Of a DNA stretch of 64,000 nt, positions 1-36,463 are shown piece by piece. How positions within the stretch are numbered: the first letter of the stretch is position 1; every line of letters begins with the position of its first letter. The translations under genes were made by a program, and so were the position numbers. The DNA comes from Sandaracinaceae bacterium (GTDB lineage Bacteria > Myxococcota_A > Polyangia > Polyangiales > Sandaracinaceae), in NCBI GenBank assembly GCA_019637095.1, contig JAHBWG010000001.1, positions 1 through 64,000 of the forward strand, written 5' to 3'. The notes beneath the pieces were generated by a model, which saw only the letters and a list, made by a program, of their open reading frames with translations, did no database searches and was not told the origin of the DNA.

Positions 1-1
1 T

Positions 2-838
2 GTCACCCCAAGTCTCATCGGCGTCGCACGCCACTACCCCGACGTCACCCCGAGCGGCAGCGGCCCCCTCCGAGAGCAACTTGCGACGCCCGGGGCTTCG
101 CCCCCCGGTCTCCACTTCACGGAGTCTCTGCCTACCTATCCGGTGGCCCACGAATGCGCGGACTGCGGTGGCGAACCGCGACGCCGCCTGCACCATGACG
201 GCGGCGTCCACGCCGACTCCGCACTGCCGTCACTGGCCGCGCGCGAGGCCCTGCTGGCGGGCGACCTTAGAAGTTCGCGCGCAAAGACATTCGACCCGTA
301 TCGACCGGTGCGGAGTCCATGTGCCAACTTCGCGTTCCAGATAGGCGTCGGCGACCCTGAGTTCGTCGATTTCCGCAACGCTCTCATGATAGCGCTAGGA
401 CGAGCGAGCGACCCGAACCAGGGTGCAGGTCCTCCTGTTACGAGTTGGGTGGGCTGGGCCGGCGTGCGCGACGTCGTTTGGATCGAGGGCTTCTGTGCAG
501 AGCTGACACGCCAGATCGCCGTCAACCCCAGATTGCAGCTGTGGATGGACTTTCAAGCCCGCGGACAAGTCACGCCTGAGATAATCTGCAGATGTATTGC
601 AGAATCCACGCGAGACTGGGTCGATGTTTCCCTCAGTTACAACGAGTGCGTGATGGCCTACGGTGAACGAGCATGCGCGCGCTTCCGTCATGGCGTTGAC
701 TGGCCAACCGTTGCGGCCTATCAAGTCGGCGCAGACTTCCACACACTCCTCTTCTCGCCCGAGATCAGATGCGGGGCCCGGGTCTGTGGCTTAGTCGGCC
801 GGAGCCCGTATGTACAGAGTGGCTACCGCGTCCGGTAG
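2..838 (+). CDS. HYPDVTP-repeat cassette protein, copy 1 (5' partial)
   Basis: The gene enters from beyond the left edge, so its start and N-terminus are missing. The visible part opens inside the 14-residue tandem repeat shared with three later genes (VTPSLIGVA, then RHYPDVTP). It goes on with a Cys pair (CADCGG) and the motif LHHDGGVHAD, which recurs as LHHDGSVHTD in copy 2. About 200 residues follow that match nothing else in the window, with some eight further cysteines. No signal peptide or membrane segment is visible in this part. The stop overlaps the start of a lipoprotein gene by 29 bp, as in copy 3, so the two are probably translated together. The payload uses AT-richer codons (TTA, AGA, ATA) than the window average, which suggests separate ancestry. 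Function unknown. Confidence 0.75.
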   Translation, partial: VTPSLIGVARHYPDVTPSGSGPLREQLATPGASPPGLHFTESLPTYPVAHECADCGGEPRRRLHHDGGVHADSALPSLAAREALLAGDLRSSRAKTFDPYRPVRSPCANFAFQIGVGDPEFVDFRNALMIALGRASDPNQGAGPPVTSWVGWAGVRDVVWIEGFCAELTRQIAVNPRLQLWMDFQARGQVTPEIICRCIAESTRDWVDVSLSYNECVMAYGERACARFRHGVDWPTVAAYQVGADFHTLLFSPEIRCGARVCGLVGRSPYVQSGYRVR

Positions 839-1295
839 ACGACGAGGAAGCATTAGCGCGCTGCTACGCTACCTGTGTGGAGTGCTGGCACCTCTCGTCG
901 TCTGCATCTCTTGCACTCGCACCCCAGCCGGTGCACCGGTAGCGACCGCCGCCGCGAGTCGACTTCCCCGTGTCGCAGGACATTTCGTACCGTCATCACC
1001 ACGCTGCCCTCGGCCGATGTGGCGCTTTCGCGTTGGGGATACAGCGACCCCGGAGAGGTTTGACGTGCGAAGTGACGACGCACGAAGCCGCGTCTTTCTG
1101 CGGCTGCACGATTGGCATTGCGCGTACCACACAAGTCCGCCAGGGCATCATATCACGATTGCGTGTGGCACAGGCTCCACTGTGGTCAGCTACGCCGCCA
1201 CCTGCGGCCAAGCGCCGCTGTCGCTAGCTGTCTTTCAAACCGCGCCTGGCGGGGAGGTTGCTATCGTTCATGCTGTCTGCACCTGTGGCACCTAG
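810..1295 (+). CDS. small Cys-containing lipoprotein partnered with cassette copy 1
   Basis: This is a 161-residue protein with an Arg-rich n-region, a hydrophobic stretch (about residues 17-32) and a lipobox-like VCISC, so it is probably exported and lipidated. The mature part has several cysteines, including a C-terminal CTCGT. It is unlike the longer lipoproteins behind cassette copies 2 and 3 but holds the same position. It starts inside the end of the preceding gene (29-bp overlap), which argues for coupled translation. No family recognised. The choice of ATG is fairly safe because the lipobox lies about 35 residues in. A role as protector or outer-membrane partner of the upstream payload is only a guess from position. 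Confidence 0.6.
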   Translation: MYRVATASGRRRGSISALLRYLCGVLAPLVVCISCTRTPAGAPVATAAASRLPRVAGHFVPSSPRCPRPMWRFRVGDTATPERFDVRSDDARSRVFLRLHDWHCAYHTSPPGHHITIACGTGSTVVSYAATCGQAPLSLAVFQTAPGGEVAIVHAVCTCGT

Positions 1296-1343
1296 GCTCG
1301 CAGCAGCTATCGGGCCGGGAGGCCAACCATGTTAGAGCCTCGA

Positions 1344-1536
1344 ACTTCTTCACGAACCCCATCGGCGTCGTCATCCTCGACTCCAACTCCGTCCCCGCCG
1401 CCGGCACCTCCGCCTCGAGCGCGTCGACCCGCCCCTGGGCTCGATGCTCGCCGTGCGCGTCAAGGGCTCTCGCGACCAGACCGGGGGGAACATCCGCGCC
1501 CGCCTCAGCGTCGACCTCGTGATGAAGACCTCGTGA
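1344..1536 (+). pseudogene. 3' fragment of the 139-aa cassette-leading gene (before copy 2)
   Basis: This stretch is nearly identical to the last 190 or so bases of the intact gene at 6309-6728, starting at the FFTNPIGVV codons and running through the stop. It lacks the first two-thirds of the gene. It is also one base short in the run after CCGGCA (five bases where the intact gene has six), so the reading frame is broken. Similarity continues without a break through the spacer and ribosome-binding site into the next cassette gene. The fragment therefore travelled as the upstream flank of a duplicated cassette. Confidence 0.85.
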
Positions 1537-1579
1537 TGCCTGGACGTCGACGGCGCCGCCCTCTACCCTGGAGCTGCTC

Positions 1580-2290
1580 ATGATCCGTCTCTCCCAGGGG
1601 CTCGTCACCGCCGAGCCGCCGGCCACGCCTATGCCGCTCGCCGGACAACCCGCGCCCGTAGCCCTCCCGGCTCACGCGCCAACCCCGCGCGGCACGCGCC
1701 ACTACCCCGACGTCACCCCAAGCCTCATCGGCGTTGCGCGCCACTACCCCGATATCACCCCAAGTCTCATCGGCGTCGCACGCCACTACCCCGACGTCAC
1801 CCCCAGCCTCATCGGCATCGCTCGCCACTACCCCGACGTTGCGCCGAGAATGACGGCGGAGGTCCCGACGTGCACGTGCGGCGACTCGTGCCAGTGCGGC
1901 GCGCCTCCGAGGCCGCTGCATCACGACGGCAGCGTCCACACCGACTACGAGACACCTCCCGGACCGCTTCTCGAAGCATTCACGGAGACAGCCCAACGCG
2001 TTCCCAGGCTCCCCTGCCATGTCGAAGTCACCAGTCCCTGTGGTACCTGCCGTCCGGGGACGCGATGTTGGCGATTTCAGACGGTCGACGGAGCCGTCGC
2101 GGACTTCTTCTGCGACCCATGGGAGAACGAGCCGCTCCCTCTCGAACGGGGGCAGGCAGCATGCCGCGCACTACTTGGATCCAGCACGCGGTGCTTGCTT
2201 CCGCTGACGCGGCGGGCGAACCCGCGTGAAGACCCTTATCGCTTTCGCATCGCCTGCGATGCCCTCTCAGGCGCACGCGCCGTGCGATGA
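1580..2290 (+). CDS. HYPDVTP-repeat cassette protein, copy 2
   Basis: This 236-residue protein starts at an ATG preceded by GGAG. Residues 1-39 are a conserved Pro/Ala-rich leader (MIRLSQGLVTAEPPATP...). Residues 40-89 hold three full 14-residue repeats (RHYPDVTPSLIGVA, with V/I changes) and one partial repeat. A Cys cluster follows (CTCGDSCQCG), then LHHDGSVHTD as in copy 1, and a Cys-containing payload of about 110 residues found nowhere else here. There is no signal peptide. The leader and repeats are almost identical to copies 3 and 4, while the payload is unrelated to them, so the boundary looks like a recombination or domain-swap point. A lipoprotein gene begins 18 bp downstream. No known family recognised. 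Confidence 0.8.
   Translation: MIRLSQGLVTAEPPATPMPLAGQPAPVALPAHAPTPRGTRHYPDVTPSLIGVARHYPDITPSLIGVARHYPDVTPSLIGIARHYPDVAPRMTAEVPTCTCGDSCQCGAPPRPLHHDGSVHTDYETPPGPLLEAFTETAQRVPRLPCHVEVTSPCGTCRPGTRCWRFQTVDGAVADFFCDPWENEPLPLERGQAACRALLGSSTRCLLPLTRRANPREDPYRFRIACDALSGARAVR
1697..1846 (+). repeat. 42-bp in-frame tandem repeat, 3 full units plus a partial
   Basis: Each 42-bp unit encodes R-H-Y-P-D-V-T-P-S-L-I-G-V-A. Units start at 1697, 1739 and 1781, and a 24-bp partial unit starts at 1823. Units differ by a few third-position changes and by V/I substitutions. Copies 3 and 4 of the cassette have only two full units plus a partial, so the unit number varies, as expected from slippage or unequal crossover. 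Confidence 0.9.
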
Positions 2291-2308
2291 CAAAGACGAC
2301 GGCTGCCA

Positions 2309-3526
2309 TTGTTGAGCGTTAGACATCTCGCGGCCTACGGCATCGCTGCGTCCCTGGTGGGATGCCTCGCCCGACATACGCCGCCTGGCGACGACGCTGG
2401 CTCGTCATCCGGGGACGTCATCGCTCCAGTCGTGTGCCGTTCGGCAGCCACACTGGAGCAGTACGAGGAGGTTCGCGCGGCTCTCAGCGCTGGGTGGTGC
2501 GCCCACGCTTCGAGCTGCGGCCCTATCGAGGACGTGGGCGTCGCTGTCGTGGAGGGTTCGATGGATCGATGTCCCGGCGAAGGATGGCACCGGTTCTTGG
2601 TCGACTTGGTGTTGCCGGACCGGGCGGAGATCGGGGCTGGCCGTCGCGGATTCGACCCCGCTGCGGCCGCCGCCTGCCTCGCCGGAGTCGTGCCCGGTTG
2701 CCCCCAGTGGGGGCTGTTGGACTACGCCGAATGTCATCAAGTCTTTCCACCGCGATGCCCAGTGGGGCCTGGCTCACCCTGCCGCGGCCCGAGCGACTGT
2801 GGAGAGGCCATGTGGTGCCGGTTCGACCTCGACGTGTGTGAAGGAGCTTGCGAGCCGAGGCAGCCCGTCGGCGGAACGTGCTCGCGGCTCGAACAGTGCC
2901 TGCGCCCCACAGACGGTTCCGTTGCGTGGTGCCACATGGAGGAAGGGTCACTCCTCGGCGTCTGCGTCGGGCTTCGGCCCCGTGCGGAGCCCGCCGCCGT
3001 CGGCGAGCGATGCGCGCTGGTGGATGGGGAGCCTGTCTACTGTGCCGACGGACTGACCTGTCGACGACTCGCGGGAAGCGTCATGCAGGTCTGCGAGGTT
3101 TCGGATGGTCGCACCCCCTGCGGCCCGAGCACGGCATGCCCGACGGGGTCGCGTTGCGACAATCTCTGGACGCAGGGTAATGGACGTTGCGTCGAGTCTC
3201 CGCCCGTGAGAGTCGTCCGTATAGGAGAGAGCTGTACCCGAGGAGACGCCTGTGACCAAGCTTGGGGCTCCCAATGCATCGAAGGGCGTTGTCGGGAAGC
3301 AGGAACGGCGGAGAATGCTCCGTGCATGACCTACGGGAGCCTGGGCATCTGCGATGCTCCGCTGACCTGCGACCCCGGGACGCGCCGTTGCGCACGCGCC
3401 GGGGCTCTTCCGCTCGACACGGCGTGCCTTCGCGACTCCGATTGCTCCTCCGGCCGCTGTTGCCGCGTCACCGACGCCGTGAGTGATCAGCGCTGCTGCG
3501 ACGCGGCGACCTGTAGAGAAGGATGA
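2309..3526 (+). CDS. Cys-rich Dickkopf-like lipoprotein partnered with cassette copy 2
   Basis: This is a predicted lipoprotein of about 405 residues. A short n-region and hydrophobic segment lead to the lipobox LVGC near residue 19, followed by a polar linker. Residues 40-145 form a helical, Cys-containing N-terminal domain. The rest is a ladder of short Cys motifs of the type CxxGxxCxxxxC, similar to the Dickkopf-like Cys-rich proteins common in myxobacteria, and ends in SGRCC...CCDAATC. The same two-part layout is seen at 4552-5784 and 11295-12941. The likely start is TTG (2309 or 2312), because no ATG or GTG lies between the preceding gene and the signal segment. The gene follows the cassette gene by 18 bp and probably shares its transcript. 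Likely disulfide-bonded at the outer membrane; function unknown. Confidence 0.75.
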   Translation: MLSVRHLAAYGIAASLVGCLARHTPPGDDAGSSSGDVIAPVVCRSAATLEQYEEVRAALSAGWCAHASSCGPIEDVGVAVVEGSMDRCPGEGWHRFLVDLVLPDRAEIGAGRRGFDPAAAAACLAGVVPGCPQWGLLDYAECHQVFPPRCPVGPGSPCRGPSDCGEAMWCRFDLDVCEGACEPRQPVGGTCSRLEQCLRPTDGSVAWCHMEEGSLLGVCVGLRPRAEPAAVGERCALVDGEPVYCADGLTCRRLAGSVMQVCEVSDGRTPCGPSTACPTGSRCDNLWTQGNGRCVESPPVRVVRIGESCTRGDACDQAWGSQCIEGRCREAGTAENAPCMTYGSLGICDAPLTCDPGTRRCARAGALPLDTACLRDSDCSSGRCCRVTDAVSDQRCCDAATCREG

Positions 3527-3697
3527 CGTCGTCATCTTCGACTCCAACTCCGTCCCCGCCGCCGGCACCCCCGCCTCGAGCGCGTCGACCCGCCCCTGGG
3601 CTCGATGCTCGCCGTGCGCGTCAAGGGCTCCCGCGACCAGACCGGGGGGAACATCCGCGCCCGCCTCAGCGTCGACCTCGTGATGAAGGCCTCGTGA
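3527..3697 (+). pseudogene. 3' fragment of the 139-aa cassette-leading gene (before copy 3)
   Basis: This is a second truncated copy of the end of the 6309-6728 gene. Similarity begins directly after the TGA of the lipoprotein gene (TGA at 3524-3526) and runs through the old stop codon into the next cassette. It carries a one-base deletion at the same place as the 1344-1536 fragment (after CCGGCA), although the neighbouring base differs (CCCCC here, CCTCC there). No start codon or usable frame remains. Confidence 0.85.
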
Positions 3698-3740
3698 TGC
3701 CTGGACCTCGCCCCCGCCGCGCTCTACCCTGGAGCTGCTC

Positions 3741-4574
3741 ATGATCCGTCTCTCCCAGGGCCTCGTGACCGCCGAGCCCCCGGCCACGCCTCTGCCGCTC
3801 GCCGGCCATCCCCTGCCCGCGCCTCCGACGGCTCACGCGCCAACCTCGCGCGGCACGCGCGACTACCCCGACGTCACCCCAAGCCTCATCGGCGTCGCAC
3901 GCCACTACCCCGACGTCACCCCCAGCCTCATCGGCGTCGCTCGCCACTACCCCGACGTCACCCCGCGCGGACCTGAGGACGCCTCCGCGTTCGGCGGCTA
4001 CGGGAGCGTGCCCCGCTCGTCCGGAGCCCACGACTGCGGATGCGGGCCCTGCGGCGCGCAGGGAAGAGGCTGTGGTCGTGGCGGGAGGGCGGCACCGCCG
4101 GAGACCCTGAGCGGCCTCTCGCTGCCGCCGGCGCTCCCTCGCACGGGTCTCGCCGTGACCGCGGCGGTCGCCGAACGCATGATGGCGCTCCCCTCCCGAG
4201 GGCTCTTGCTCGACGACGACGCGCTCACCGCGCTCGACCTCCAGCCGCTCGAGCTCGCCGGGTTCCTGCGCGACCCGCGAACGCGTGGAGTCGTCACGGA
4301 CCGGCTCGTCGGCGGGCCCGAGCGCTCGTCGTTCTACACCTCGGGCTGCTGGCTCTCGATCATCCCGCCAGGGTGCGACGTCGCCGGCTCGAGCCCGCCG
4401 CGGGCCGCGTGCGCGCTGACCTCCTGCTATCGGTACGACAGCCTCCCTGTCTGTCTGGAGACGCTTGGCTTGCAGGATCTCTTGGTCCGCCAATCGGATG
4501 TCAACCGGCTGGAATTTCCCCGCATGTTCGAGCTCTTCCTCCGGTGCCCTGGTGACGACCTCTGCGCGCGCTGA
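3741..4574 (+). CDS. HYPDVTP-repeat cassette protein, copy 3
   Basis: This 277-residue protein has the same GGAG-preceded ATG and Pro/Ala-rich leader as copies 2 and 4. Residues 40-75 hold two full 14-residue repeats (the first begins RDYPDVTP) and a partial one. The Cys cluster is CGCGPCGAQGRGCGRG. After it comes a linker of the type PPET...PALPRTGLAV, shared with copy 4 but not with copies 1 or 2, and then about 150 unique residues with paired cysteines (GCW...PPGCD, ACALTSCYR, CPGDDLCAR). There is no signal peptide or membrane segment. The 3' end overlaps the probable start of the next lipoprotein gene by 23 bp. No known family recognised. Confidence 0.8.
   Translation: MIRLSQGLVTAEPPATPLPLAGHPLPAPPTAHAPTSRGTRDYPDVTPSLIGVARHYPDVTPSLIGVARHYPDVTPRGPEDASAFGGYGSVPRSSGAHDCGCGPCGAQGRGCGRGGRAAPPETLSGLSLPPALPRTGLAVTAAVAERMMALPSRGLLLDDDALTALDLQPLELAGFLRDPRTRGVVTDRLVGGPERSSFYTSGCWLSIIPPGCDVAGSSPPRAACALTSCYRYDSLPVCLETLGLQDLLVRQSDVNRLEFPRMFELFLRCPGDDLCAR
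3858..3965 (+). repeat. 42-bp in-frame tandem repeat, 2 full units plus a partial
   Basis: Units start at 3858 and 3900, and a 24-bp partial unit starts at 3942. They encode RDYPDVTPSLIGVA, RHYPDVTPSLIGVA and RHYPDVTP. Sequence and phase match the arrays at 1697 and 6889. Confidence 0.9.
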
Positions 4575-5784
4575 CCGCCGCTCGCTATCGGGTATCCTCG
4601 CCGCTGTCGCGTCCGTCGTCTTCGTAGGCTCGTGCCTGTCGGGATGTTTCGCCGCACACTCCCCGCCGCCCATCGGTGCCGCGCGCGACGCGTCCGTACC
4701 GGCCCCGGACGCGCTCGCGCCGGATACGGGGTCGACGTGCGGGGTCTCACGCGATGAAGCCATGGCGTTCGTCGATGCGGTGGGCGTGGCCTTCTGTCGG
4801 AGCCGCTCGCGGTGCGCGGCCTCGTTCGCGTCCGGCCCGACGGCGGCAGAGTGCGAGCATCGCGCCACGCTCGACAGTTCGATTCTTCCTCGGTTCTCCG
4901 TGCTCACTCGACTCGCTCGGGACGGCGTGCAGCTCGACCCCGCGGAGTCTGCGCGGTGCCTCGCAGCGGCGGAGGAGAGGTGTCAACGCAGCGACACTTT
5001 TGGTCGGAGCGACGGTGTCGCCACGTGGTGGCGAGTCCTCGACGCCTGCCGCGCCGCCATGCGACCGTGCGGTGCCTCGGTCGAGTGCCTCGCGGACTGG
5101 GAGTGCCCGTCGGACCACTACTGCGACCGCAGGACGGTGTGCGAGCCCGGGGTTTGCCGGCCGGGCGTGCCTTTGGGGGCGCCGTGTGAGCGCGACGCGG
5201 AGTGCCTCCCTACGGGCAGAGACGACGAGATCGCCGGATGCGGCTCCGACGCCCGATGCACCGCGTACGTGCTCGTCGATGGGCGCCTCGTGGGCGAGGC
5301 GTGCGGCCCCGGCGAGCGCGACGCGGAGGGCCGGCTCATCGTCGGTGGATGTAGCCCGGGAGCCGTGTGCGCTTGCCCGGACCGCGAAGAAGGCTGCCAC
5401 TGCCGGCCGATGGGCGGGTTGGGCGCACCATGCGATCTCGATGAGCTGTGCGAGCCAGATCTGCTCTGCGACGACTACACCGGCTCCGCTGGAAGCGGCC
5501 GGTGCATCGATCGCGCGAGCATCGATGGCCGGAGCCCCTGCTCCGCGCTCCTGTGCGACGGCACGACGAGCTACGTCTGCGGTGCGGACGACCGATGCAT
5601 GCCGGCGGAGGGTACCGAGGGTGCCCGATGTCTTTACTTCGAGCACTGCAATCGCGGGCTCTACTGCGGCGCACCCCACGGCGGACCTCACGGACAGTGC
5701 CGTGCGTTGCTGGAGTCTGGCGCCCCGTGCGAGTCTCTGTTGCAGTGTCAGTCGGGCTGCTGTCGTGCTGGCCGCTGCGCCTGA
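4552..5784 (+). CDS. Cys-rich Dickkopf-like lipoprotein partnered with cassette copy 3
   Basis: This is a predicted lipoprotein of about 410 residues. The GTG at 4552 places a short basic n-region (VTTSARADRRS) before a hydrophobic stretch ending in the lipobox CLSGC, whereas an upstream extension would bury the signal peptide. A helical N-terminal domain with spaced cysteines (residues 60-170) is followed by repeated CxxxxxCxxxxxC motifs, ending in CQSGCCRAGRC. It is a paralogue of 2309-3526 and 11295-12941. Its start lies inside the end of the cassette gene (23-bp overlap), which suggests coupled translation. Likely anchored in the outer membrane; function unknown. The pairing with the upstream payload repeats in copies 1-3 of the array. 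Confidence 0.75.
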   Translation: MTTSARADRRSLSGILAAVASVVFVGSCLSGCFAAHSPPPIGAARDASVPAPDALAPDTGSTCGVSRDEAMAFVDAVGVAFCRSRSRCAASFASGPTAAECEHRATLDSSILPRFSVLTRLARDGVQLDPAESARCLAAAEERCQRSDTFGRSDGVATWWRVLDACRAAMRPCGASVECLADWECPSDHYCDRRTVCEPGVCRPGVPLGAPCERDAECLPTGRDDEIAGCGSDARCTAYVLVDGRLVGEACGPGERDAEGRLIVGGCSPGAVCACPDREEGCHCRPMGGLGAPCDLDELCEPDLLCDDYTGSAGSGRCIDRASIDGRSPCSALLCDGTTSYVCGADDRCMPAEGTEGARCLYFEHCNRGLYCGAPHGGPHGQCRALLESGAPCESLLQCQSGCCRAGRCA

Positions 5785-6124
5785 CCTCCCGCCCCGGGCG
5801 CGGAGCGCCTCGCAGCTCTCGACACTAGCCAACCAGAGCGACGTCACGAGGGCGGAGAGCGATGAGAACCTCGGACAGCCGATGCCGTGCGTCGTGTTCT
5901 CCCGCAGCCGACCCGGAGCGCGCGGGCGAGCCGAGCTTCCCGCGCACGATGTGGTAGCGTTCTTGCAGCGTGGCCACGCCCTCCTCGGATGGCCGTCGAG
6001 TCCTCCGTGTGTCGTGTTCGAGCGAGCGTACGTCGCGTTCGAGCGAGCCATCGTGCCAGGGCGCAGAGCTGCAAAGGCATCTTGGCGACTTTGCGCCTTT
6101 GTGCGCGCCGCCGCGTCGCCGCGA

Positions 6125-6140
6125 TAACCCTAATGGGTTA
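6125..6140. promoter_or_regulatory. inverted repeat, possible operator
   Basis: TAACCC-TAAT-GGGTTA is a perfect 6-bp inverted repeat around a 4-base spacer. It is unusually AT-rich for this DNA and lies about 38 bp upstream of the TTGACA box. A repressor or activator site is possible but unproven. Confidence 0.3.
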
Positions 6141-6177
6141 ACGCCGGAGAAAAGCGCCGATCGAACGACAGTGTGCC

Positions 6178-6204
6178 TTGACAACTTCGGGGGGGGTGTA
6201 CGGT
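6178..6204 (+). promoter_or_regulatory. possible sigma-70-type promoter
   Basis: A perfect -35-like TTGACA at 6178-6183 is followed 15 bases later by a weak -10-like TACGGT. The spacer is short and holds a run of eight G. Only the -35 box is convincing. Confidence 0.25.
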
Positions 6205-6308
6205 GCGAGGGTTCCGGGCATCTCGCCCGGCACGGGGGAAGCGTGACGGGCCACCGCCTACGCCGTGGCGGCGCCTCGCCTCACGCACGCACAGACAGGA
6301 GATGAGAC

Positions 6309-6728
6309 ATGAGTGGACGTGTGATTCGGGTCACCCCGCCGCGGGACTTCTACTTCGACGGTCTCGCCGACCAACAGAGCCTCCAGGTCGTCGTCGCCGA
6401 GGGCATCGACGTCACCGGGTTCGACCTCCTCGACCTCCTCGTCCGGGTCCACGCGGACGCCGCGATCCCGAACGGCGCCTCGATCGAGGTCGCCGTCCTC
6501 TCGGACGGTCACACCCTCGACGACCCCTCGCGCGACTTCTTCACGAACCCCATCGGCGTCGTCATCTTCGACTCCAACTCCGTCCCCGCCGCCGGCACCC
6601 TCCGCCTCGAGCGCGTCGACCCGCCCCTGGGCTCGATGCTCGCCGTGCGCGTCAAGGGCTCCCGCGACCAGACCGGGGGGAACATCCGCGCCCGCCTCAG
6701 CGTCGACCTCGTGATGAAGACCTCGTGA
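6309..6728 (+). CDS. 139-aa protein leading the cassette array (only intact copy)
   Basis: This 139-residue protein has a good AGGAG site eight bases before its ATG. It has no signal peptide, no membrane segment and no cysteine. Alternating hydrophobic and polar residues (LQVVVAEGID, LLVRVHADAAI, TLRLERVDPP, MLAVRVKGS, RARLSVDLVMK) suggest an all-beta fold of about eight strands, as in small sandwich or coat-like proteins. It lies 43 bp before cassette copy 4. Its 3' end is found, broken, before copies 2 and 3, so the gene is an ancestral part of the cassette. It may be a scaffold or carrier for the repeat proteins, but that is inference from linkage. No family recognised. Confidence 0.85.
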   Translation: MSGRVIRVTPPRDFYFDGLADQQSLQVVVAEGIDVTGFDLLDLLVRVHADAAIPNGASIEVAVLSDGHTLDDPSRDFFTNPIGVVIFDSNSVPAAGTLRLERVDPPLGSMLAVRVKGSRDQTGGNIRARLSVDLVMKTS

Positions 6729-6771
6729 TGCCTGGACGTCGACGGCGCCGCCCTCTACCCTGGAGCTGCTC

Positions 6772-8034
6772 ATGATCCGTCTCTCCCAGGGCCTCGTCAC
6801 CGCCGAGCCGCCGGCCACGCCTATGCCGCTCGCCGGACAACCCGCGCCCGTAGCCCTCCCGGCTCACACCCCAACCCCGCGCGGCGCGCGCGACTACCCC
6901 GACGTCACCCCCAGCCTCATCGGCGTCGCACGCCACTACCCCGATGTCACCCCCAGCCTCATCGGCGTCGCTCGCCACTACCCCGACGTCACCCCGCGCG
7001 CACGCGAGGGCGCCTCCGCGCTCGGGGACTTCGCCTGCGCTCGAGACCAGGCCGGCGTCCTGGATTGCGCATGCGGGTCGTGCGCCGGGGACGGCGCATG
7101 TGAGTGTGGTGAGCAGGCCGACCCGCGAGAGACGCCCGGCAGCCCCACACCCGCTCTCCCGGGGCTCGCCGTCCGCCGAGCCATCGGCGAGAGCTCCCTG
7201 CCGGCGACCCGCGTGCCCATCACGCGGTGGTCCGTCTGCGGCCCGTTGCATACGATGGTCCGTCGAAGCTACGAGCTGACACCATCTGAGCATAGCTGCG
7301 TCGTGCAGGCCTTCCACGATGCAGATCGGGCGATGGGCACGCTCAGCTGCACCGACCTCATGGGATGCGGGGAGACGCCGACGGGGGACGAGGACGATGA
7401 TCGTTCACCTGAGGAGCGCGCGGCTGACCGCAACGACGAGTGGCTCCGCCGCTGGCGTGCGGCCTTTGCCGGAGCCCTCGAAGCGAGGGGGTGTGTCGTC
7501 CCCGCCGCGGCCATCAAAGCCCTCTTGGACGTCCTCCTTGTGACCGTCGGTTGCTACCTTGCCCGATGCCCGGGACGCCGCGATGACGCCCCGATCACAT
7601 TCGACTTCCAGCGCCCCTTCATCACGGTCGGCATCCCGACGCGCATCGACTACGAGGAGTGCGTTCCAAGCCACGGCTTCACGCCCCACGCGCCGACCCC
7701 TGGGCTCCCGTGGGACGGCGGCCGCCCGCGTCCCATGCCGCCACCCGAGGCGCCTCCCGGCGGGCCGGCGCCGCCCTCGCATCACCACCGCCTCATGCCG
7801 GAGACGCCCTTTGCACCCCGGTATCCGCTGCCCCCCATTGGGCCTGGGCACTGGCGAGAGTACTGCGATTGCATCAACTGCGGCTACCGAGGCGAATCGC
7901 GAGACTGTCGCTACCCGTGTCCCCATTCACAGTGGCGCTGCACTTGCCCCTTCCAGTGCCCGGTCCGCGTTCATGACGACGACTTTCTGTGGCGGGTCCG
8001 AACACCGTGCGACTGTACCTTCCTCTCGTTCTAG
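6772..8034 (+). CDS. HYPDVTP-repeat cassette protein, copy 4 (longest payload)
   Basis: This 420-residue protein has the conserved leader (residues 1-39), two full 14-residue repeats and a partial one (40-75), and a Cys cluster CACGSCAGDGACECG. A linker PRET...PALPGLAV follows, similar to copy 3. The payload is about 300 residues in three parts: a helical middle, a Pro-rich stretch with HHH (about 310-345), and a very Cys-rich tail (CDCINC, CRYPCPH, CTCPFQCP, CDCTF). The tail's CxC/CxxC spacing could bind metal or form disulfides. There is no signal peptide. This copy follows the only intact 139-residue gene and is not followed by a lipoprotein, unlike copies 1-3. Function unknown. Confidence 0.8.
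   Translation: MIRLSQGLVTAEPPATPMPLAGQPAPVALPAHTPTPRGARDYPDVTPSLIGVARHYPDVTPSLIGVARHYPDVTPRAREGASALGDFACARDQAGVLDCACGSCAGDGACECGEQADPRETPGSPTPALPGLAVRRAIGESSLPATRVPITRWSVCGPLHTMVRRSYELTPSEHSCVVQAFHDADRAMGTLSCTDLMGCGETPTGDEDDDRSPEERAADRNDEWLRRWRAAFAGALEARGCVVPAAAIKALLDVLLVTVGCYLARCPGRRDDAPITFDFQRPFITVGIPTRIDYEECVPSHGFTPHAPTPGLPWDGGRPRPMPPPEAPPGGPAPPSHHHRLMPETPFAPRYPLPPIGPGHWREYCDCINCGYRGESRDCRYPCPHSQWRCTCPFQCPVRVHDDDFLWRVRTPCDCTFLSF
6889..6996 (+). repeat. 42-bp in-frame tandem repeat, 2 full units plus a partial
   Basis: Units start at 6889 and 6931, and a 24-bp partial unit starts at 6973. They encode RDYPDVTPSLIGVA, RHYPDVTPSLIGVA and RHYPDVTP, as in copy 3. Confidence 0.9.
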
Positions 8035-8080
8035 AGTGTCGCCGACACTAGCCAGAAGCTAGCCACCTGTGGAGGAGCCG

Positions 8081-8851
8081 ATGGTTCTCGCACCGACTGC
8101 TCAGGAGCTCACACGGATGCGTCAAGAAGTCGCGTGGGTCGGCGCGGCGCTCGAGGAAGCGTGTCTCCTCGAGCAGGAGGTGTCACGCGATCCGTCACAC
8201 GGAGAGCTGCTCGGTGCCTTCCAGTGGCCGGCGCTTGCCAACGACTTCACGGTGAACACGACTGTGGCTCACTCGGGCGCCGCGCGAGTCTCATGCCGCG
8301 CGCTTACCGAACTCACGCATCGCCTGTTCGCGATCCCTTGCGTACGCTTCTCGTGGCTGCGGTTTGCCTCTGACGCTCTGACGGGCGGGCTCGCGATTGG
8401 CTCGGCGGGCTATCACGCCAGCCCGCTGGCGACCCTGATTGTCCAAGGCTGGCTCGAAGGTGCCATGGTGGCTTGGTACCAACTTGGGTGCCGAAATGAA
8501 ACGTCGAGAGACGAACTGGTCCTCTGCGCCAAGATGCTGCTCGAGCTGATTCGGTCCGACCTGGAGCCGAAGTGCTTCGATGAGGCTATTTTACGCGTGG
8601 AGCGCGCGCTCTTGCACCTGTGCGCATTTGCCATCTATCAGCCGGCCCGCAGCGCTCGGCTCGAACCGAGCGAGCGCGAGGAGCTGCGGCGTTGGCTGGA
8701 CGGTCGGGGCACGATCGAGCGACAGATACCGACCTTCGAGATCGTCGCGTCATCCTTCGAGCGTACGATCGCCGAGCGCATCCTGGCAGAGCTCGATCCT
8801 CACGCGCCAGATCCTCCCTTCGAGGGCGATACCCGCGGGCCGGATTCGTGA
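8081..8851 (+). CDS. unknown soluble protein downstream of cassette copy 4
   Basis: This protein has 256 residues if it starts at the ATG at 8081, which has GGAGGA five bases upstream. A GTG four codons earlier falls within that same site and is less likely. The protein appears soluble and largely helical, with no signal peptide, and it has a run of hydrophobic helices in the middle (about residues 85-150). The C-terminal part has charged helices (ERTIAERILAELD). It lies 46 bp after the copy-4 cassette gene, where copies 1-3 have a lipoprotein gene. No known domain recognised. Codon use is looser than in the 10-64 kb part of the window, which fits recent acquisition. Confidence 0.7.
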   Translation: MVLAPTAQELTRMRQEVAWVGAALEEACLLEQEVSRDPSHGELLGAFQWPALANDFTVNTTVAHSGAARVSCRALTELTHRLFAIPCVRFSWLRFASDALTGGLAIGSAGYHASPLATLIVQGWLEGAMVAWYQLGCRNETSRDELVLCAKMLLELIRSDLEPKCFDEAILRVERALLHLCAFAIYQPARSARLEPSEREELRRWLDGRGTIERQIPTFEIVASSFERTIAERILAELDPHAPDPPFEGDTRGPDS

Positions 8852-8902
8852 TGAGCTCTGTCCGCAGCACGCGGGGTCCAGCAGCGTGACCGTTGATGAG
8901 CG

Positions 8903-9628
8903 TTGTCATGGGGTGGGCGCCGAAACCCGTACCTCGGACGGACGACCTGTGAACCGAAGGTGCGTGGGGGCCTCGGGGGGCGAAGGGTGATTCGGGCCCA
9001 CGAGGTGGTAAGGGCCCTCGGCGGTTCTCCGCTCATGATTCGAACCGCACGGCTTCATCAGAGGTCTTGGCGGACGTTCTGGGACGCCATCGACAGGCCA
9101 TCCTGGCTGGGCAGCTTCATCACGCAAGTCGGCGGCTGCGAAGAGGCGGTTCCGCGAATCCTGTCTTTGGTTGAACCGCTGATCACCTCGGCTCTGGCTC
9201 GTGCCAAGAGCCCATCTGCCTGGAGCGCGGCGACCACCACCAACGAGAGTCTCCTGGAGGCTCGCACCCACTCGGATGCCCTCCCTGGAGTGCTCGCCGG
9301 TGTTGGCAACCTTCTCACGGTCGCGCCGGACAGCCGGGTCCAGCTCCGACAGATCTGCGACTCCATCCGCGAGATCGTGGGGGCTGAGAGAATGGCGGAG
9401 GCGTTTCTAACGAGCAGTTGGTGTACCCTCGAGTCGCCGCTGCGTCATGCCAAGACCGCGAGACTCAGTCGGCCACTGCTTCCGACGGGCCAGTATCGTG
9501 TGAGGGCGACGGCGAATCAGCGCATCTACGTGGTTGAGCCATGGCTCGTGGTCGAATACAGGACACACGAGGTGCATCATTCCATGCGCTGGGTGGAACA
9601 CCTCGAGTGGAGCGAGGAGCTGGAGTAG
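8903..9628 (+). CDS. unknown protein at the right end of the cassette island
   Basis: This open frame could encode up to 241 residues from a TTG. A GTG at 8987 (VIRAHEVVRALGG) or an ATG at 9035 (MIRTARLHQRS) are also possible starts. The part from about residue 45 on is the most protein-like: helical segments (LVEPLITSALARAKS, VQLRQICDSIREIVGAERMAEAFL) followed by a beta-rich end (YRVRATANQRIYVVEPWLVVEYR). No signal peptide or known motif is seen. It follows 8081-8851 in the same direction with a 51-bp gap and may share its transcript. No function can be given. Confidence 0.55.
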   Translation: MSWGGRRNPYLGRTTCEPKVRGGLGGRRVIRAHEVVRALGGSPLMIRTARLHQRSWRTFWDAIDRPSWLGSFITQVGGCEEAVPRILSLVEPLITSALARAKSPSAWSAATTTNESLLEARTHSDALPGVLAGVGNLLTVAPDSRVQLRQICDSIREIVGAERMAEAFLTSSWCTLESPLRHAKTARLSRPLLPTGQYRVRATANQRIYVVEPWLVVEYRTHEVHHSMRWVEHLEWSEELE

Positions 9629-11294: not shown

Positions 11295-12941
11295 GTGGCG
11301 CTGTCGCCCGAGATCGTGAGGGCGACTGAGGCCGGTCGACGGGCGCGAGCGCGGAGCGGCGGGGCGCCAGCGCGGGCGGCGTTCCTCGGCCTGTGCGCCG
11401 TCGCGGCGCTGGGCTGTTCCGGGAGCGCGCCCGCGACCGAGCCCGCACGCCCGACGCCGCTCGCGTCGGCGCGGGGTGCGCCGCCGGCGGATGGTGTCGC
11501 CCCGAAGATCGAGCCGGACCCGGAGGTCGAGATCGTGTGCCGGCCGCGAACGACGCTCGACGAGGTCGCGGCCTGGCGGCTCCCTCACCAGCGCGTGCGC
11601 TGCGAGCGAGAGCCCCACTGCGGCGCGCGACGGTACGCCACCGTGGAGGAGTGCGTGCGCCGCCGCGCGCACCGCGACGAGGACGAGCGCGTGTTCCCTT
11701 CGGACGATCGGATCGTGAGCGGAGAGCTCGCCCTCGACCCGGTGGCGGCGCAGGCGTGCCTCGAGCGCCCAGCGCGTGACGTGTGCAGCCCCGACGGACG
11801 GCCCGAGCCGGTCTTCGTCGATGGGCTCGTCGACGATCCGTGCCGGCGGGTCTTCACCCGCCGGTGCACGACGCGGGGCGGGGAGTGGTGCCAGAACCTC
11901 GAGGAGTGTGGGCCGGGGTTCTACTGCGAGCTCCCCGATCGCCTGCAGCTCGCGCGGGAGGGCCGCGTGCCGGAGACGGCGTGCATGGCGGGACGCTGCG
12001 TCCCGACGCTGCCGCCGGGCGCCCGCTGCACGTCGGCGTCGCAGTGCCGGCGCGGGAGCGGCCGGCGGGCGCTCTGCCTCTCGCTGCGCCGCGGCGCGGC
12101 GCCGCCCGTCGATCTGCGCTCGGTGATCCGATCGGGGCGCGACCTCACGCGCGCCGCCGGGAGGACCTGCGTGGAGGTGGTCCTCGACGAGACCCGCGCC
12201 AGCGCCGGCGAGCGCTGCGCCATCGTCGCCATCGCAGACAGGCAGGTCGTGGCGAGGGACTGCGAACCTCCCGCGTTCTGCGAGCCCAACGAGCGTCTCG
12301 AGCCGCGCTGCCAGCTCGGGCGCCGGATCGGGGAGCCGTGCCAGCAATGGGGGCACGAGCGATGCGCGCGAGGGCTCTTCTGCAGCGGGCGGTGTACGGA
12401 CCGGCCGGGCATCGACGCCCGCGTCGCGGGAGGACCTTGCAGCGAACGTGGCGTGTGCAGCAGCGGCCTCGCCTGCCGCAACGGACGTTGCGTGGAGGCG
12501 TCGCGCGAGGGAGCGCCGTGCGAGACGAGGTACCTGGGCGGGGACGCGGTCGAGTGGTGCGAGCCACCGCTCGCGTGCGACCGCGCGACGTCGACGTGTC
12601 GGCCCAGCGCGGAGCTCGTCGACGGGCAACCGTGCTGGCGCGACGCGGAGTGCCGGAGCGGCTGCTGCCGCCGCGGCTTCGACGAGCGGCTGGTCTGCCT
12701 GCCCGAGCACGACTGCTGCTCCCCCGCCGACCGAGGAGGGTCGGCGCGAGCGGTTCAGCCGAGCGCGTCGATGGACGCGGTGGTCACCGCGAGCGCGAGC
12801 AGGCGGTCGAGCTCGGCGTCGTCGCGGCACGCGAGCACGCGCGCGCACAGCGCGTCGTCGGGGACGAAGCCGCGCGCGGCGAGCACGGACAGGATCGCGG
12901 CGGCCTTGCCCTCGGCCCGCAGCTCCTCGACGCTCGCGTAG
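11295..12941 (+). CDS. Cys-rich Dickkopf-like lipoprotein, third paralogue (C-terminal readthrough)
   Basis: This 548-residue predicted lipoprotein starts at GTG with an Arg-rich n-region, and its lipobox is AALGC near residue 41. It has the same layout as 2309-3526 and 4552-5784: a helical Cys-containing domain, then CxxxxxCxxxxxC repeats ending in CRSGCCRRGF...DCC. The relatives stop at that point. Here the frame continues for about 65 low-complexity Ser/Ala residues that lie antisense to the end of a Uma2 gene. The natural stop may have been lost, or a frameshift may hide it near 12735. Unlike its paralogues it is not attached to a HYPDVTP cassette. Probably surface-exposed; function unknown. 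Confidence 0.7.
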   Translation: MALSPEIVRATEAGRRARARSGGAPARAAFLGLCAVAALGCSGSAPATEPARPTPLASARGAPPADGVAPKIEPDPEVEIVCRPRTTLDEVAAWRLPHQRVRCEREPHCGARRYATVEECVRRRAHRDEDERVFPSDDRIVSGELALDPVAAQACLERPARDVCSPDGRPEPVFVDGLVDDPCRRVFTRRCTTRGGEWCQNLEECGPGFYCELPDRLQLAREGRVPETACMAGRCVPTLPPGARCTSASQCRRGSGRRALCLSLRRGAAPPVDLRSVIRSGRDLTRAAGRTCVEVVLDETRASAGERCAIVAIADRQVVARDCEPPAFCEPNERLEPRCQLGRRIGEPCQQWGHERCARGLFCSGRCTDRPGIDARVAGGPCSERGVCSSGLACRNGRCVEASREGAPCETRYLGGDAVEWCEPPLACDRATSTCRPSAELVDGQPCWRDAECRSGCCRRGFDERLVCLPEHDCCSPADRGGSARAVQPSASMDAVVTASASRRSSSASSRHASTRAHSASSGTKPRAASTDRIAAALPSARSSSTLA

Positions 12942-32032: not shown

Positions 32033-35000
32033 ATGCCCCCCCGCAACTACCGTTCCGCAATACTGCTCATCGGGATCGCGCTCACCGGGTGCGTGAGTGA
32101 GCCCACCGAGGAGATCGCGAGCGCCGGCTCCGAGCTGCGCGGAACGCTCGGTGTCGACCTGTTCGACGACCCGCCCGGCCCGATCTCGAGCGCGACCGTC
32201 TGGCTGCAGCAGTCGGCCGGTGGCAACTGCACCGGGACTCTCGTCGCGCCCCGGGTCGTGCTGACCGCGGCGCACTGCGTTCGAGCGGGCCGCCTACCTC
32301 GGGTGATCGTGCGTACCGTCGCGAGCACCGGTCTCGTCACCGACGTCACGCGGGTCGCGGTGGGCTGCTGGGCGCACCCGGGCGCGCTATCCGGCGACCG
32401 GCCCATCGCGGCCTGCGACGACCTCGTCGGCAGAGCTGACGGTGAGTTCGATGGAGCGCACGACATCGCGCTGCTCGAGCTCGACGCCCCGGCCCCTGCC
32501 CTGCCCCGCGCGCTCGGACCACCCAGGCTCTGTCTCGCAGGCGAGCCCTCGCCGGGGCTCCGCTCGCGCGAGCGCACGGGGAGCCCCCCGAACCTCCGCG
32601 CACGCCGGCGCGAGCGCATCCGCGCCTTCTCCCCCGCCGGGCAGACGGTCATCTGCTTCCAGGACGATGTCGTGCAGCCAGGCGACTCGGGCGGCACCAT
32701 CGACGCCCAGGAGGATCCGGGGGGCCCCGTGGTCGGCGTCAACTCGGCGTACGGAGCGGCCGGTGGATGCCGGCGCCAGCCGCTGCTCTGGCAGGGCGCC
32801 ACGGACTTCGGCAAGCAGCCCAACATCGAGTGGATCTGGTCGGTGCTCGACCCCGTCGGCACCTGCGCGCTCGGCAGCACGGTGCCGTGCGACCCCGCGA
32901 GGCTGCCCGGGCCGCTCGCCGACTCCGACGGTGACGGACTGCCGGACATCCGCGATCTCTGCCCGCACCAGGCGCCATCGCGGGTGTGCGGCGGACAGCA
33001 CTGCGACGCCGACGGGGACTGGGTGGGCGACGAGTGCGACGAGTACGACGGCCTCGACGACTTCGCCGGCACACCCAACGACGAGCTCGCCGCCTGCGAC
33101 CACGACGACCCCGACGGCGACGGCATCCCGAGCGCCGCCGATCCTTGCCCGAGCCTCCACGCATCGCGCACCGACGTCGCCGCGGACGCCGACCGCGACG
33201 GCGTGCCCGACGCGTGCGACGTGTGCCCGGGAATCGACGACGCGACCGTCGACTTCGACGCGGACGCCGACGAGGACGGCATCCCCGACGCCTGCGACAA
33301 CTGTCGGGACGAGCCAAACCGACTGCAGGAGGACTGCAACCTCGACGCGGAGCTCGCGCTCTGGGAGGTGGACTGCCCGCCCGATCCGACGGGGGAGCCG
33401 TCGTGCCCGCGGCGCGACTTCGTGCACGGCGACGCGTGCGACCCGACGCCGTGCGGCGAGACCACGGTCGGGACGGAAGTCGTCGGCGTGCGCGCCGCCG
33501 AGGAGGTGGTCCCGAACGCGGTGCGCGTCGACGCGCGCTCCGCGGTCGGGCACGACGGGCGTACTGGCTTCCGGTTCTGCCGGTGCCGCTTCGTGAACCG
33601 CCTCGACGACATGGAGGAGCGCGGACGGTGCATCCCGGAAGACAACTTCACGGTCCCGGGCGACGGTGGTGAGGACGTCGAGGTCCGCCTCGGCAACTGC
33701 GGCCCCCTCGACACCGAAGCCTACGACAACGAGTCGATCGAGCCTCCCAACTGGCGCTGGACCACGATGGCCTTCGCGAACAACCCGGCGAGCCCCGAGG
33801 GCGATCGCTCGTCGCCGCTGCTGCGGACCGAGCGTGACCTCGCCTACACCCCGGTCACCGACGGCGGCACGCGCTTCGTCACCGACCTCTGGGCCGCGTG
33901 GCACGTACGCGACGAGGACGTCCCGCGCTGGCGCACCGCGTTCGCCGAGCCGATCGTCGACGGTCCGATCGCGAACCTCCCCGGCGTCTTCTGGACCCAC
34001 ACGCCGGGGCCGCCCTCGGGCGGCGAGGCGACGGAGTGGGGGCGCCTGCTCGCCAGCCACTTCTGGTCCGGCCGCGGGCGCATGCCGAACGATCCACCGG
34101 TCCCGGTGCGCGAGCCGTACCCATGCATCCAAGGCATCGCGCCCGCCTTCGGCGCCGCGGGCTTCGGGCCGATCCCGATCCTGTGGATCGGCCTGGCCGC
34201 CGTGCGCTGCCCGCCGCTGCTCGACCCGCGGCTCGTGCTGCGCCTGGGCCCGTTCGTGTTCGAGCCGCAGCCGGGCCTCGACGCGCCGTGGCTGGGGCTC
34301 TTCGCGCGCCCGAGCACGCGCTGGGTGGCCGCGGCCGAGTCGGGCGGCTGGCTCCCCGAGGACGACGTCCGCTACGCGGGCCTCTCGCCCGATCTCGCGC
34401 TCGCGAGCCTGCTCGTCGCGGCCGGCGACGACCTCTACGATCGCTACGCGCAGCAGCCGTGTCCTCCCGAGCAGTGCAACGCGATCCCGGTCACGCTGAC
34501 GGCGGCGAGCGGGCCGGCCACGCCCCCACCCGTCCTCGTCCTGTCGGCGCGGCGGCGCGTGCTCTGGGCGCTCGAGCAGGACGGGGCGAGCACGCGCGTG
34601 CGCGCGCTCGACCTCGACCAGCCGATCTGGCGCGAGCTGCCGCCTGCGGGCGCGCCGCTCGGTCGCGTGCTCGCCGCGACCTACTCGGCGCCCGACGACG
34701 CGCTCTACGTCCTCGACGAGCTCGCCGGCCCGGGCCGGAGCCGCCACGCGCGCCTCGTGCGCGTCGAGACCGGCCCCCGAGACGCCACCGCCGAGGTCCT
34801 GGCCCGCTGGCCGCGCGCGACGCCGCACGACGTCTTCGCGCTCGCGACGGACCCGGCCGGCGCGCTCTACCTCGCGAGCGGGCGGGCGCACGGCCCGCTC
34901 GTCGCGCTCGTCCGCTTCGGGCGCGATCGGCGCGAGCGCGCCGTGCCCACCGGCCTCCTCGTCCGTCCGGGCCGGCTCGTGCCCGAGGGCCTGCGCGCGA

Positions 35001-35113
35001 ACGAGCACGGGCTCACCCTGCTCCTCGACGATCCGCGCGAGGGCGCCTTCCCGGTCGCGGTCGGCTACGACGCGCTGCGCCCGGCGGCGGGAGCGATCGG
35101 GCGGTGCCTCTGA
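32033..35113 (+). CDS. trypsin-like serine protease lipoprotein with calcium-binding TSP3-type repeats
   Basis: This lipoprotein of about 1026 residues has lipobox ALTGC (C20). The ATG at 32033 follows AGGAG. Residues 50-290 are an S1 protease domain with the full triad: His in LTAAHC (81), Asp in HDIALLELD (144) and Ser in QPGDSGGT (219). Residues 305-460 hold thrombospondin type 3-like Asp-rich repeats (DSDGDGLPDIRDLCP, DPDGDGIPSAADPCP, DADRDGVPDACDVCP), which bind calcium. The last 600 residues are a large unassigned part whose end resembles propeller strands. A secreted or surface protease of a predator is a reasonable role. Bases 34407-35047 of this gene are repeated exactly at 36567-37207. 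The stop overlaps the next gene by 10 bp. Confidence 0.92.
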   Translation: MPPRNYRSAILLIGIALTGCVSEPTEEIASAGSELRGTLGVDLFDDPPGPISSATVWLQQSAGGNCTGTLVAPRVVLTAAHCVRAGRLPRVIVRTVASTGLVTDVTRVAVGCWAHPGALSGDRPIAACDDLVGRADGEFDGAHDIALLELDAPAPALPRALGPPRLCLAGEPSPGLRSRERTGSPPNLRARRRERIRAFSPAGQTVICFQDDVVQPGDSGGTIDAQEDPGGPVVGVNSAYGAAGGCRRQPLLWQGATDFGKQPNIEWIWSVLDPVGTCALGSTVPCDPARLPGPLADSDGDGLPDIRDLCPHQAPSRVCGGQHCDADGDWVGDECDEYDGLDDFAGTPNDELAACDHDDPDGDGIPSAADPCPSLHASRTDVAADADRDGVPDACDVCPGIDDATVDFDADADEDGIPDACDNCRDEPNRLQEDCNLDAELALWEVDCPPDPTGEPSCPRRDFVHGDACDPTPCGETTVGTEVVGVRAAEEVVPNAVRVDARSAVGHDGRTGFRFCRCRFVNRLDDMEERGRCIPEDNFTVPGDGGEDVEVRLGNCGPLDTEAYDNESIEPPNWRWTTMAFANNPASPEGDRSSPLLRTERDLAYTPVTDGGTRFVTDLWAAWHVRDEDVPRWRTAFAEPIVDGPIANLPGVFWTHTPGPPSGGEATEWGRLLASHFWSGRGRMPNDPPVPVREPYPCIQGIAPAFGAAGFGPIPILWIGLAAVRCPPLLDPRLVLRLGPFVFEPQPGLDAPWLGLFARPSTRWVAAAESGGWLPEDDVRYAGLSPDLALASLLVAAGDDLYDRYAQQPCPPEQCNAIPVTLTAASGPATPPPVLVLSARRRVLWALEQDGASTRVRALDLDQPIWRELPPAGAPLGRVLAATYSAPDDALYVLDELAGPGRSRHARLVRVETGPRDATAEVLARWPRATPHDVFALATDPAGALYLASGRAHGPLVALVRFGRDRRERAVPTGLLVRPGRLVPEGLRANEHGLTLLLDDPREGAFPVAVGYDALRPAAGAIGRCL
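34407..35047 (+). repeat. 641-bp exact direct repeat, copy A (inside the protease gene)
   Basis: Every base from 34407 to 35047 is the same in 36567-37207 by line-by-line reading, at an offset of 2160 bp. Similarity stops abruptly on both sides. Copy A lies in the 3' part of the protease gene. Confidence 0.95.
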
Positions 35114-36453: not shown

Positions 36454-36463
36454 GGCCGAGAGG

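What the first reader, a model, noticed from the sequence alone, without database searches (positions are those of the whole stretch)
1..9628. Array of four exchangeable-payload cassettes built on a HYPDVTPSLIGVAR repeat protein
Four genes share an almost identical leader, a tandem 14-residue repeat and a Cys cluster, then switch abruptly to four unrelated Cys-containing payloads. Copies 1-3 are each followed by a lipoprotein gene. One intact 139-residue gene leads copy 4, and its 3' end survives as a fragment in front of copies 2 and 3. Constant front, variable back and a paired downstream gene recall polymorphic-toxin or modular-effector arrays, yet no known trafficking or toxin domain is visible. 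The constant part may be a docking or sorting tag for the 139-residue protein or an export machine. I know of no described system with these parts.
Basis: partly seen in the sequence, partly recalled or inferred. Interest (0 to 1): 0.78.

Follow-up and report, generated by a model that had tools for sequence, protein, structure and literature searches.

The report
Shared-front, swappable-back cargo genes with jellyroll
A soil bacterium of the predatory myxobacterial type carries a row of genes whose fronts are nearly identical and whose back halves differ completely, sharing one small partner protein of an undescribed family that turns up across the phylum next to varied enzymes, so it looks like an undescribed swappable-weapon or swappable-enzyme system.

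Summary
Blocks of ~460 nt, 93-97% identical, recur at 1344-1803, 3527-3994 and 6535-7025 and end abruptly; each carries the 3' end of the 139-residue gene plus leader and 42-nt repeats, followed by unrelated backs. Copy 1's leader is not visible: the window starts at a contig end inside a repeat. The 139-residue protein belongs to an undescribed family: AlphaFold2 gives a confident 8-strand jellyroll (pLDDT 93.8); no Pfam, NCBIfam or PDB sequence relative. Profiles find it in scattered Myxococcota, directly upstream of diverse signal-less proteins (beta-lactamase/polyglycine-hydrolase-like, PLD, beta-helix, Cys-rich), often followed by a lipoprotein. A distant family independently shows one constant front (89% over 45 residues, then nothing) on different backs behind this gene. 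Best reading: a modular cargo/effector system whose backs are exchanged by recombination in the front, with the jellyroll as shared partner or carrier. Docking, export, toxicity and immunity are unproven; window payloads match nothing. Closest in logic: polymorphic-toxin arrays with orphan modules.

The parts
2..838 (+). cargo copy 1, N-terminus off the contig: 1.5 repeats, CxxCG cluster, 220-residue back
   Evidence: open frame; no database match
810..1295 (+). putative lipoprotein after copy 1 (lipobox-like LVVCISC)
   Evidence: fails two strict lipobox tests, so uncertain
1344..1536 (+). 3' fragment of the jellyroll gene before copy 2 (5' end lost, out of frame at first, in frame from about 1399)
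1344..1803 (+). homologous block of copy 2 (jellyroll 3' end + spacer + leader + repeats)
   Evidence: 96.7% identical to 6535-6995
1580..2290 (+). cargo copy 2, 236 aa: leader, repeats (1695-1839), CTCGDSCQCG, back
2309..3526 (+). Cys-rich lipoprotein after copy 2
   Evidence: lipobox LLSVRHLAAYGIAASLVGC; weak EB-module match below the Pfam cut-off
3527..3697 (+). 3' fragment of the jellyroll gene before copy 3; homology starts at the base after the preceding stop codon
3527..3994 (+). homologous block of copy 3
   Evidence: 93.6% identical to 6557-7025
3741..4574 (+). cargo copy 3, 277 aa: leader, repeats (3858-3964), CGCGPCG, back
4552..5784 (+). Cys-rich lipoprotein after copy 3 (start codon uncertain)
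   Evidence: lipobox ILAAVASVVFVGSC; DUF7107 and Dickkopf_N matches
6309..6728 (+). intact jellyroll protein, 139 aa, no signal peptide, no Cys
   Evidence: AF2 pLDDT 93.8, pTM 0.88, 8 strands
6535..7025 (+). homologous block of copy 4
6772..8034 (+). cargo copy 4, 420 aa: leader, repeats (6881-6995), CACGSCAGDGACECG, back with Pro-rich linker and Cys-rich tail
   Evidence: no match
8081..8851 (+). soluble protein of unknown family in the place of the lipoprotein
8960..9628 (+). unknown protein; membership of the array doubtful

Best explanation
This is an array of modular cargo cassettes. Each cassette is, or was, [jellyroll partner] - [cargo protein: constant leader with DVTPSLIG repeats, CxCG cluster, variable back] - [usually a lipoprotein]. 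SHOWN: the jellyroll 3' end, spacer, leader and repeats form one near-identical block with sharp ends; backs plus the following gene differ; one intact jellyroll gene was found for at least five cargos in this genome; the jellyroll family stands upstream of diverse signal-less proteins across Myxococcota. INFERRED: new back + follower pairs entered by homologous recombination in the block, leaving 5'-truncated jellyroll genes as scars; the single intact jellyroll serves all cargos in trans, as an oligomeric partner or carrier that recognises the leader (repeats would give avidity); the cargo acts outside the producing cell, because cargos of relatives include hydrolases of kinds used on cell envelopes or polymers; the lipoprotein is a surface partner or a protector. 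The export route is unknown.
For: Blocks of 93-97% nucleotide identity with sharp ends. The jellyroll 3' fragments are the best conserved part (0-1 synonymous differences in 129 nt) although they cannot make the protein, as expected from recent recombination; the fronts look constrained (pS 0.13-0.21, pN 0.025-0.069). Family members sit in the same place beside PGH/beta-lactamase-like, PLD, beta-helix and weakly PETase-like proteins. One constant front with unrelated backs at several G375 loci behind jellyroll genes. Jellyroll-like domain fused to a hydrolase-like cargo at G268 C98. Cargos: 0 of 26 with a lipobox; followers 8 of 22 versus 36 of 243 background, Fisher p 0.016 (8 of 22 vs 32 of 265, p 0.005). 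Two G183 contigs both begin inside a jellyroll gene with 141 identical nt, and 5 of 39 jellyroll matches lie within 100 nt of a contig end where 0.64 are expected.
Against: No binding or secretion evidence. The four payloads and both proteins after copy 4 match nothing, so 'effector' rests on relatives. The front repeat itself is confined to one genome. The family is patchy (10 of 184 genomes of the order). Several jellyroll loci have no lipoprotein follower, and PGH-type cargos have no constant front. G317 has a CxCG-cluster protein but no jellyroll was found there (draft genome). The follower list was drawn up by me, not blind. An intact jellyroll gene upstream of copy 1 cannot be excluded.
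Confidence: 0.5

Rival explanations
1. A true polymorphic toxin/immunity system: backs are toxins, the following lipoproteins (or 8081-8851 for copy 4) are cognate immunity proteins, the jellyroll is the delivery part, and truncated copies are orphan modules.
For: Constant front/variable back, displaced tandem modules with residual core sequence, one follower gene per cargo, as described for orphan CDI modules (PMC4927057) and polymorphic toxins (PMC3482391); PLD and hydrolase cargos in relatives.
Against: No toxin domain recognised in the window; copies 2 and 3 have unrelated payloads but similar Cys-rich lipoproteins; the same lipoprotein type occurs alone at 11295-12941; follower lipoproteins are large and of generic types.
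Confidence: 0.2
2. Not weapons: expanding surface or matrix proteins and degradative enzymes displayed on the cell, with jellyroll and lipoprotein as structural partners (anchor, fibre or coat).
For: Cargos of relatives include degradative enzymes, beta-helices and Cys-rich proteins; the jellyroll model resembles, among others, fibre- and coat-forming jellyrolls (Ena appendage protein Z 8.3, BPP-1 cement protein Z 10.1).
Against: Exchange of backs at a conserved block suggests selection for diversity; no cargo has a recognised export signal; the jellyroll resemblance is generic (IBDV, meprin and Eph receptor also rank high).
Confidence: 0.22
3. Phage-derived genes: the jellyroll is a capsid- or tail-decorating protein and the cargos are accessory genes of degraded prophages.
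For: A strong whole-length fold match is the BPP-1 cement protein (114 of 140 residues, Z 10.1); in G015 three tandem family members lie a few kb from baseplate and tail genes.
Against: No relative in PHROGs, the phage records or, with three queries, IMG/VR; no phage genes noticed near the array in the window (one search list, not exhaustively annotated); many non-phage jellyrolls rank alike.
Confidence: 0.08

Closest known systems
Polymorphic toxin systems with displaced orphan modules (CDI/Rhs type; PMC3482391, PMC4927057)
   Same: constant front, variable back, following partner gene, tandem displaced modules that keep a piece of the upstream constant gene
   Different: no CdiA/CdiB, Rhs or other trafficking domain recognised, no recognised toxin domain; the constant part also includes a separate small jellyroll gene and a 14-residue repeat; displaced cargos keep their own start codon and whole front
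SitBAI of Myxococcus xanthus (PMC5562445)
   Same: myxobacterial three-gene cassettes, variable C-termini, lipoprotein involved
   Different: there the toxin itself is the lipoprotein and SitB carries a type I signal; here cargos have no signal, the first gene is a signal-less jellyroll and the lipoprotein comes last
BPP-1 cement protein Bbp16 (PMC3863775)
   Same: single 8-strand jellyroll of 140 residues; Z 10.1, rmsd 3.1 over 114 residues
   Different: 13% identity, no sequence-profile link found, neighbours are not capsid genes
Polyglycine-hydrolase-like / beta-lactamase family (PF17660 + PF00144)
   Same: cargo type in several relatives
   Different: not present in the window array

Membership tests
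Polymorphic toxin systems | constant N-terminal part joined to different C-terminal parts | tested here: met
Polymorphic toxin systems | tandem or displaced cassettes formed by recombination with a partner gene downstream | tested here: met
   form only, the partner's role is unknown
Polymorphic toxin systems | recognisable toxin domain in the variable part | tested here: inconclusive
   no Pfam or NCBIfam match for any window payload; absence of a match is not proof
Polymorphic toxin systems | known trafficking/secretion domain or signal in the constant part | tested here: not met
   no lipobox, no hydrophobic signal, no family match
Polymorphic toxin systems | downstream gene confers immunity | not testable with these tools
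   needs an expression assay
SitBAI | toxin carries a lipoprotein signal | tested here: not met
   0 of 26 cargos
SitBAI | first gene has a type I signal sequence (SitB) | tested here: not met
   jellyroll N-terminus MSGRVIRVTPPRDFYF is strand 1 of the model, no hydrophobic segment
CDI / Rhs | CdiA/CdiB or Rhs-repeat core gene | tested here: not met
   no such Pfam or NCBIfam family among the array proteins
Phage capsid cement/decoration jellyroll (Bbp16-like) | single jellyroll of about 140 residues | tested here: met
Phage capsid cement/decoration jellyroll (Bbp16-like) | sequence relationship to phage proteins | tested here: inconclusive
   no match in PHROGs, phage records, IMG/VR or PDB sequences
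Phage capsid cement/decoration jellyroll (Bbp16-like) | neighbouring capsid genes | tested here: inconclusive
   none noticed in the window gene list (not fully annotated); G015 copies lie near baseplate genes
Endospore appendage (Ena) pilins | Cys-bearing N-terminal connector on the jellyroll | tested here: not met
   the window jellyroll has no Cys; fold similarity only (Z 8.3)

The most novel reading that the evidence does not exclude
The jellyroll protein is the carrier of an undescribed, phylum-wide delivery or display system of Myxococcota. It recognises a short leader on signal-less cargo proteins, lets unrelated enzymes or toxins be plugged in behind one leader, and is paired with a lipoprotein that receives or protects; the window shows the exchange caught in the act, with truncated jellyroll genes as scars.
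Probability: 0.25. Interest if true: 0.85.

Novelty: new variant of a known kind. Interest (0 to 1): 0.64.

Why it matters
Predatory myxobacteria release many proteins by routes that are poorly known. A small protein family without any database name that marks cargo cassettes gives a handle to list candidate effectors genome by genome, and a constant front with swappable backs could be a ready-made tag for moving proteins out of these cells. If the jellyroll is a carrier, it is a delivery principle without a described counterpart; if not, it still exposes a recombining, diversifying gene system.

Tried and rejected
Payload identity: Pfam, NCBIfam, PHROGs, PADLOC, PDB sequences, plasmid records, 57 related genomes and a GTDB scan gave nothing; AlphaFold2 of the copy-1 back without homologues gave pLDDT 35 and was not used. 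GTDB, phage and IMG/VR searches for the jellyroll by single sequence gave nothing; only whole-genome searches worked; A3 had no stretch conserved enough for the viral scan. A shared docking motif between the window repeat (DVTPSLIG) and the G375 leader (EVAPTLFG) looked attractive, but two EVAPSLFG hits in other genomes proved to be chance, so the resemblance is noted, not claimed. Disulfide docking as in Ena fibres was rejected: no Cys in the window jellyroll. One large payload search failed for technical reasons and was repeated smaller. Simple duplication plus drift was rejected: identity steps from about 0.4 to about 1.0 within one or two 40-nt steps. The lipobox tests miss some plain cases because gene starts were miscalled; two strict versions are reported; visual inspection would give about 14 of 22 followers and is not used as evidence.
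Full report
What was checked. The window is G000:C1:1-64000, the start of a 227,779-base contig in a 9.25-Mb draft genome of 197 contigs. Its first base falls inside a repeat, so copy 1 has lost its front to an assembly break.

Anatomy. Three complete and one truncated cargo genes follow each other on the + strand. Copies 2-4 begin MIRLSQGLVTAEPPATP...RG, followed by 2.5-3.5 units of a 42-nt repeat (RHYPDVTPSLIGVA) and a Cys cluster (CTCGDSCQCG, CGCGPCG, CACGSCAGDGACECG; copy 1 CADCG). BLASTN shows blocks 1344-1803, 3527-3994 and 6535-7025 at 93-97% identity. Sliding identity steps sharply at the upstream end: about 0.33-0.45 to 0.97 around 1349 in copy 2, and 0.23 through 0.62 to 0.95 between 3470 and 3550 in copy 3; downstream it falls to 0.4-0.6. 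Each block contains the 3' end of the jellyroll gene. The fragments before copies 2 and 3 have lost the start and are out of frame at first, yet they differ from the intact gene by 0-1 synonymous and 2-4 nonsynonymous changes in the last 129 nt, while the coding fronts differ at 13-21% of synonymous sites. I read this as recent homogenisation by recombination. In copy 3 the homology begins on the base after the stop codon of the preceding lipoprotein.

A fifth cassette lies on contig C115: 5'-truncated jellyroll gene (84% nt identity), 14 residues of front (VIRLSRGLVTE...), an unrelated back and a lipoprotein. No second intact jellyroll gene was found in the genome, although one may lie upstream of copy 1 beyond the contig end.

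The 139-residue family. Single-sequence search of 57 related genomes gave relatives in two of them. A five-row profile extended this to further Myxococcota, and a 37-row alignment A3 found members in 10 of 184 genomes of the order and 9 of 22 of a distant family, f27. None of 37 members has a credible Pfam match; NCBIfam (window member) and PDB sequences are also empty. AlphaFold2 on A3 gives pLDDT 93.8, pTM 0.88, eight strands. VIA-align ranks the IBDV VP2 projection domain (Z 11.2), the BPP-1 cement protein (Z 10.1, 114 residues), YomS (9.3) and the Ena spore-appendage protein (8.3). It is a jellyroll; the spread of hits means that the fold does not give the function.

Context elsewhere. Gene lists around the members (approximate gene finder) show them, alone or in tandem, directly upstream of varied proteins without a signal: beta-lactamase/polyglycine-hydrolase-like (G183, G181, G097, G268), PLD (G005), right-handed beta-helix (G268, G375), a PETase-like hydrolase with a weak score (G268) and unknowns. 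In G268 C98 the hydrolase-like protein itself begins with a jellyroll-like domain, E about 1e-8. A lipoprotein often comes next: 8 of 22 by strict test against 12-15% background. In G015 three tandem members lie a few kb from phage baseplate and tail genes.

Independent test of constant front/variable back. In G375 the leader M..GxRQFGAHSEVDWRSL.GGVREVAPTxFG...EHPCKxGGxCxCGG is found at C117, C28, C56 (first 29 residues) and, weakly, C387, each right behind a jellyroll gene. C117 and C28 are 89% identical over 45 residues and then share nothing by BLASTP. The same leader occurs in G284. A Cys cluster HPCxSGGxCxCGGxCGG without that leader occurs in G225 and G317. A CxC cluster at the junction is thus a recurring feature, of unknown role.

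Recombination elsewhere. Two contigs of G183 both begin inside a jellyroll gene with 141 identical nt, the signature of a repeat that broke the assembly; 5 of 39 matches lie within 100 nt of a contig end where 0.64 are expected.

Mechanism. Shown: sharp-ended near-identical blocks, unrelated backs behind them, one intact jellyroll gene for several cargos, adjacency across the phylum, no recognised export signal on cargos. Inferred: jellyroll-leader binding, action in trans, extracellular action, protective or partner role of the lipoprotein. The exchange logic matches the model for orphan CDI modules, in which a new toxin/immunity pair integrates and displaces the old one downstream while a piece of core gene remains (PMC4927057). 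One difference matters: here every displaced cargo keeps its start codon and a whole front, so all copies could be used at once, as long as the jellyroll works in trans.

Novelty. It works like a polymorphic-effector array, but membership is not claimed: the trafficking feature was tested and not met, and toxin and immunity are open. The jellyroll family and the leader/repeat are undescribed in the libraries searched; literature searches found nothing on them, though only open-licence papers were searched.

Noticed in passing
window 34407-38273: Recent tandem duplication: 300 nt at 34407-34706 and 36567-36866 are 100% identical, with further stretches at 80-89%; it involves large predicted lipoprotein/secreted genes.
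   Followed up: no
window 11295-12941: A Cys-rich lipoprotein of the same general type as those after copies 2 and 3, with no cargo gene; lipoproteins are common in this genome (10 of 37 window genes beyond 9.7 kb pass a lipobox test).
   Followed up: partly
L055 5948-7350 (G015:C115), also G015 C3, C45, C78: Three tandem jellyroll-family genes repeated on four contigs, on C115 a few kb from contractile-tail baseplate genes.
   Followed up: partly
L061 8043-9593 and L062 2928-4499 (G003): Two 516-523 aa cargo-type proteins of an unknown family, 32% identical over 417 residues, each followed by a lipoprotein-like gene; no Pfam match.
   Followed up: partly
L050 7380-9839 (G268:C98): Natural fusion of a jellyroll-like domain to a hydrolase-like cargo with a CGC cluster.
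   Followed up: partly
window 8081-9628: Two proteins of no known family after copy 4, in the place where other copies have a lipoprotein.
   Followed up: partly
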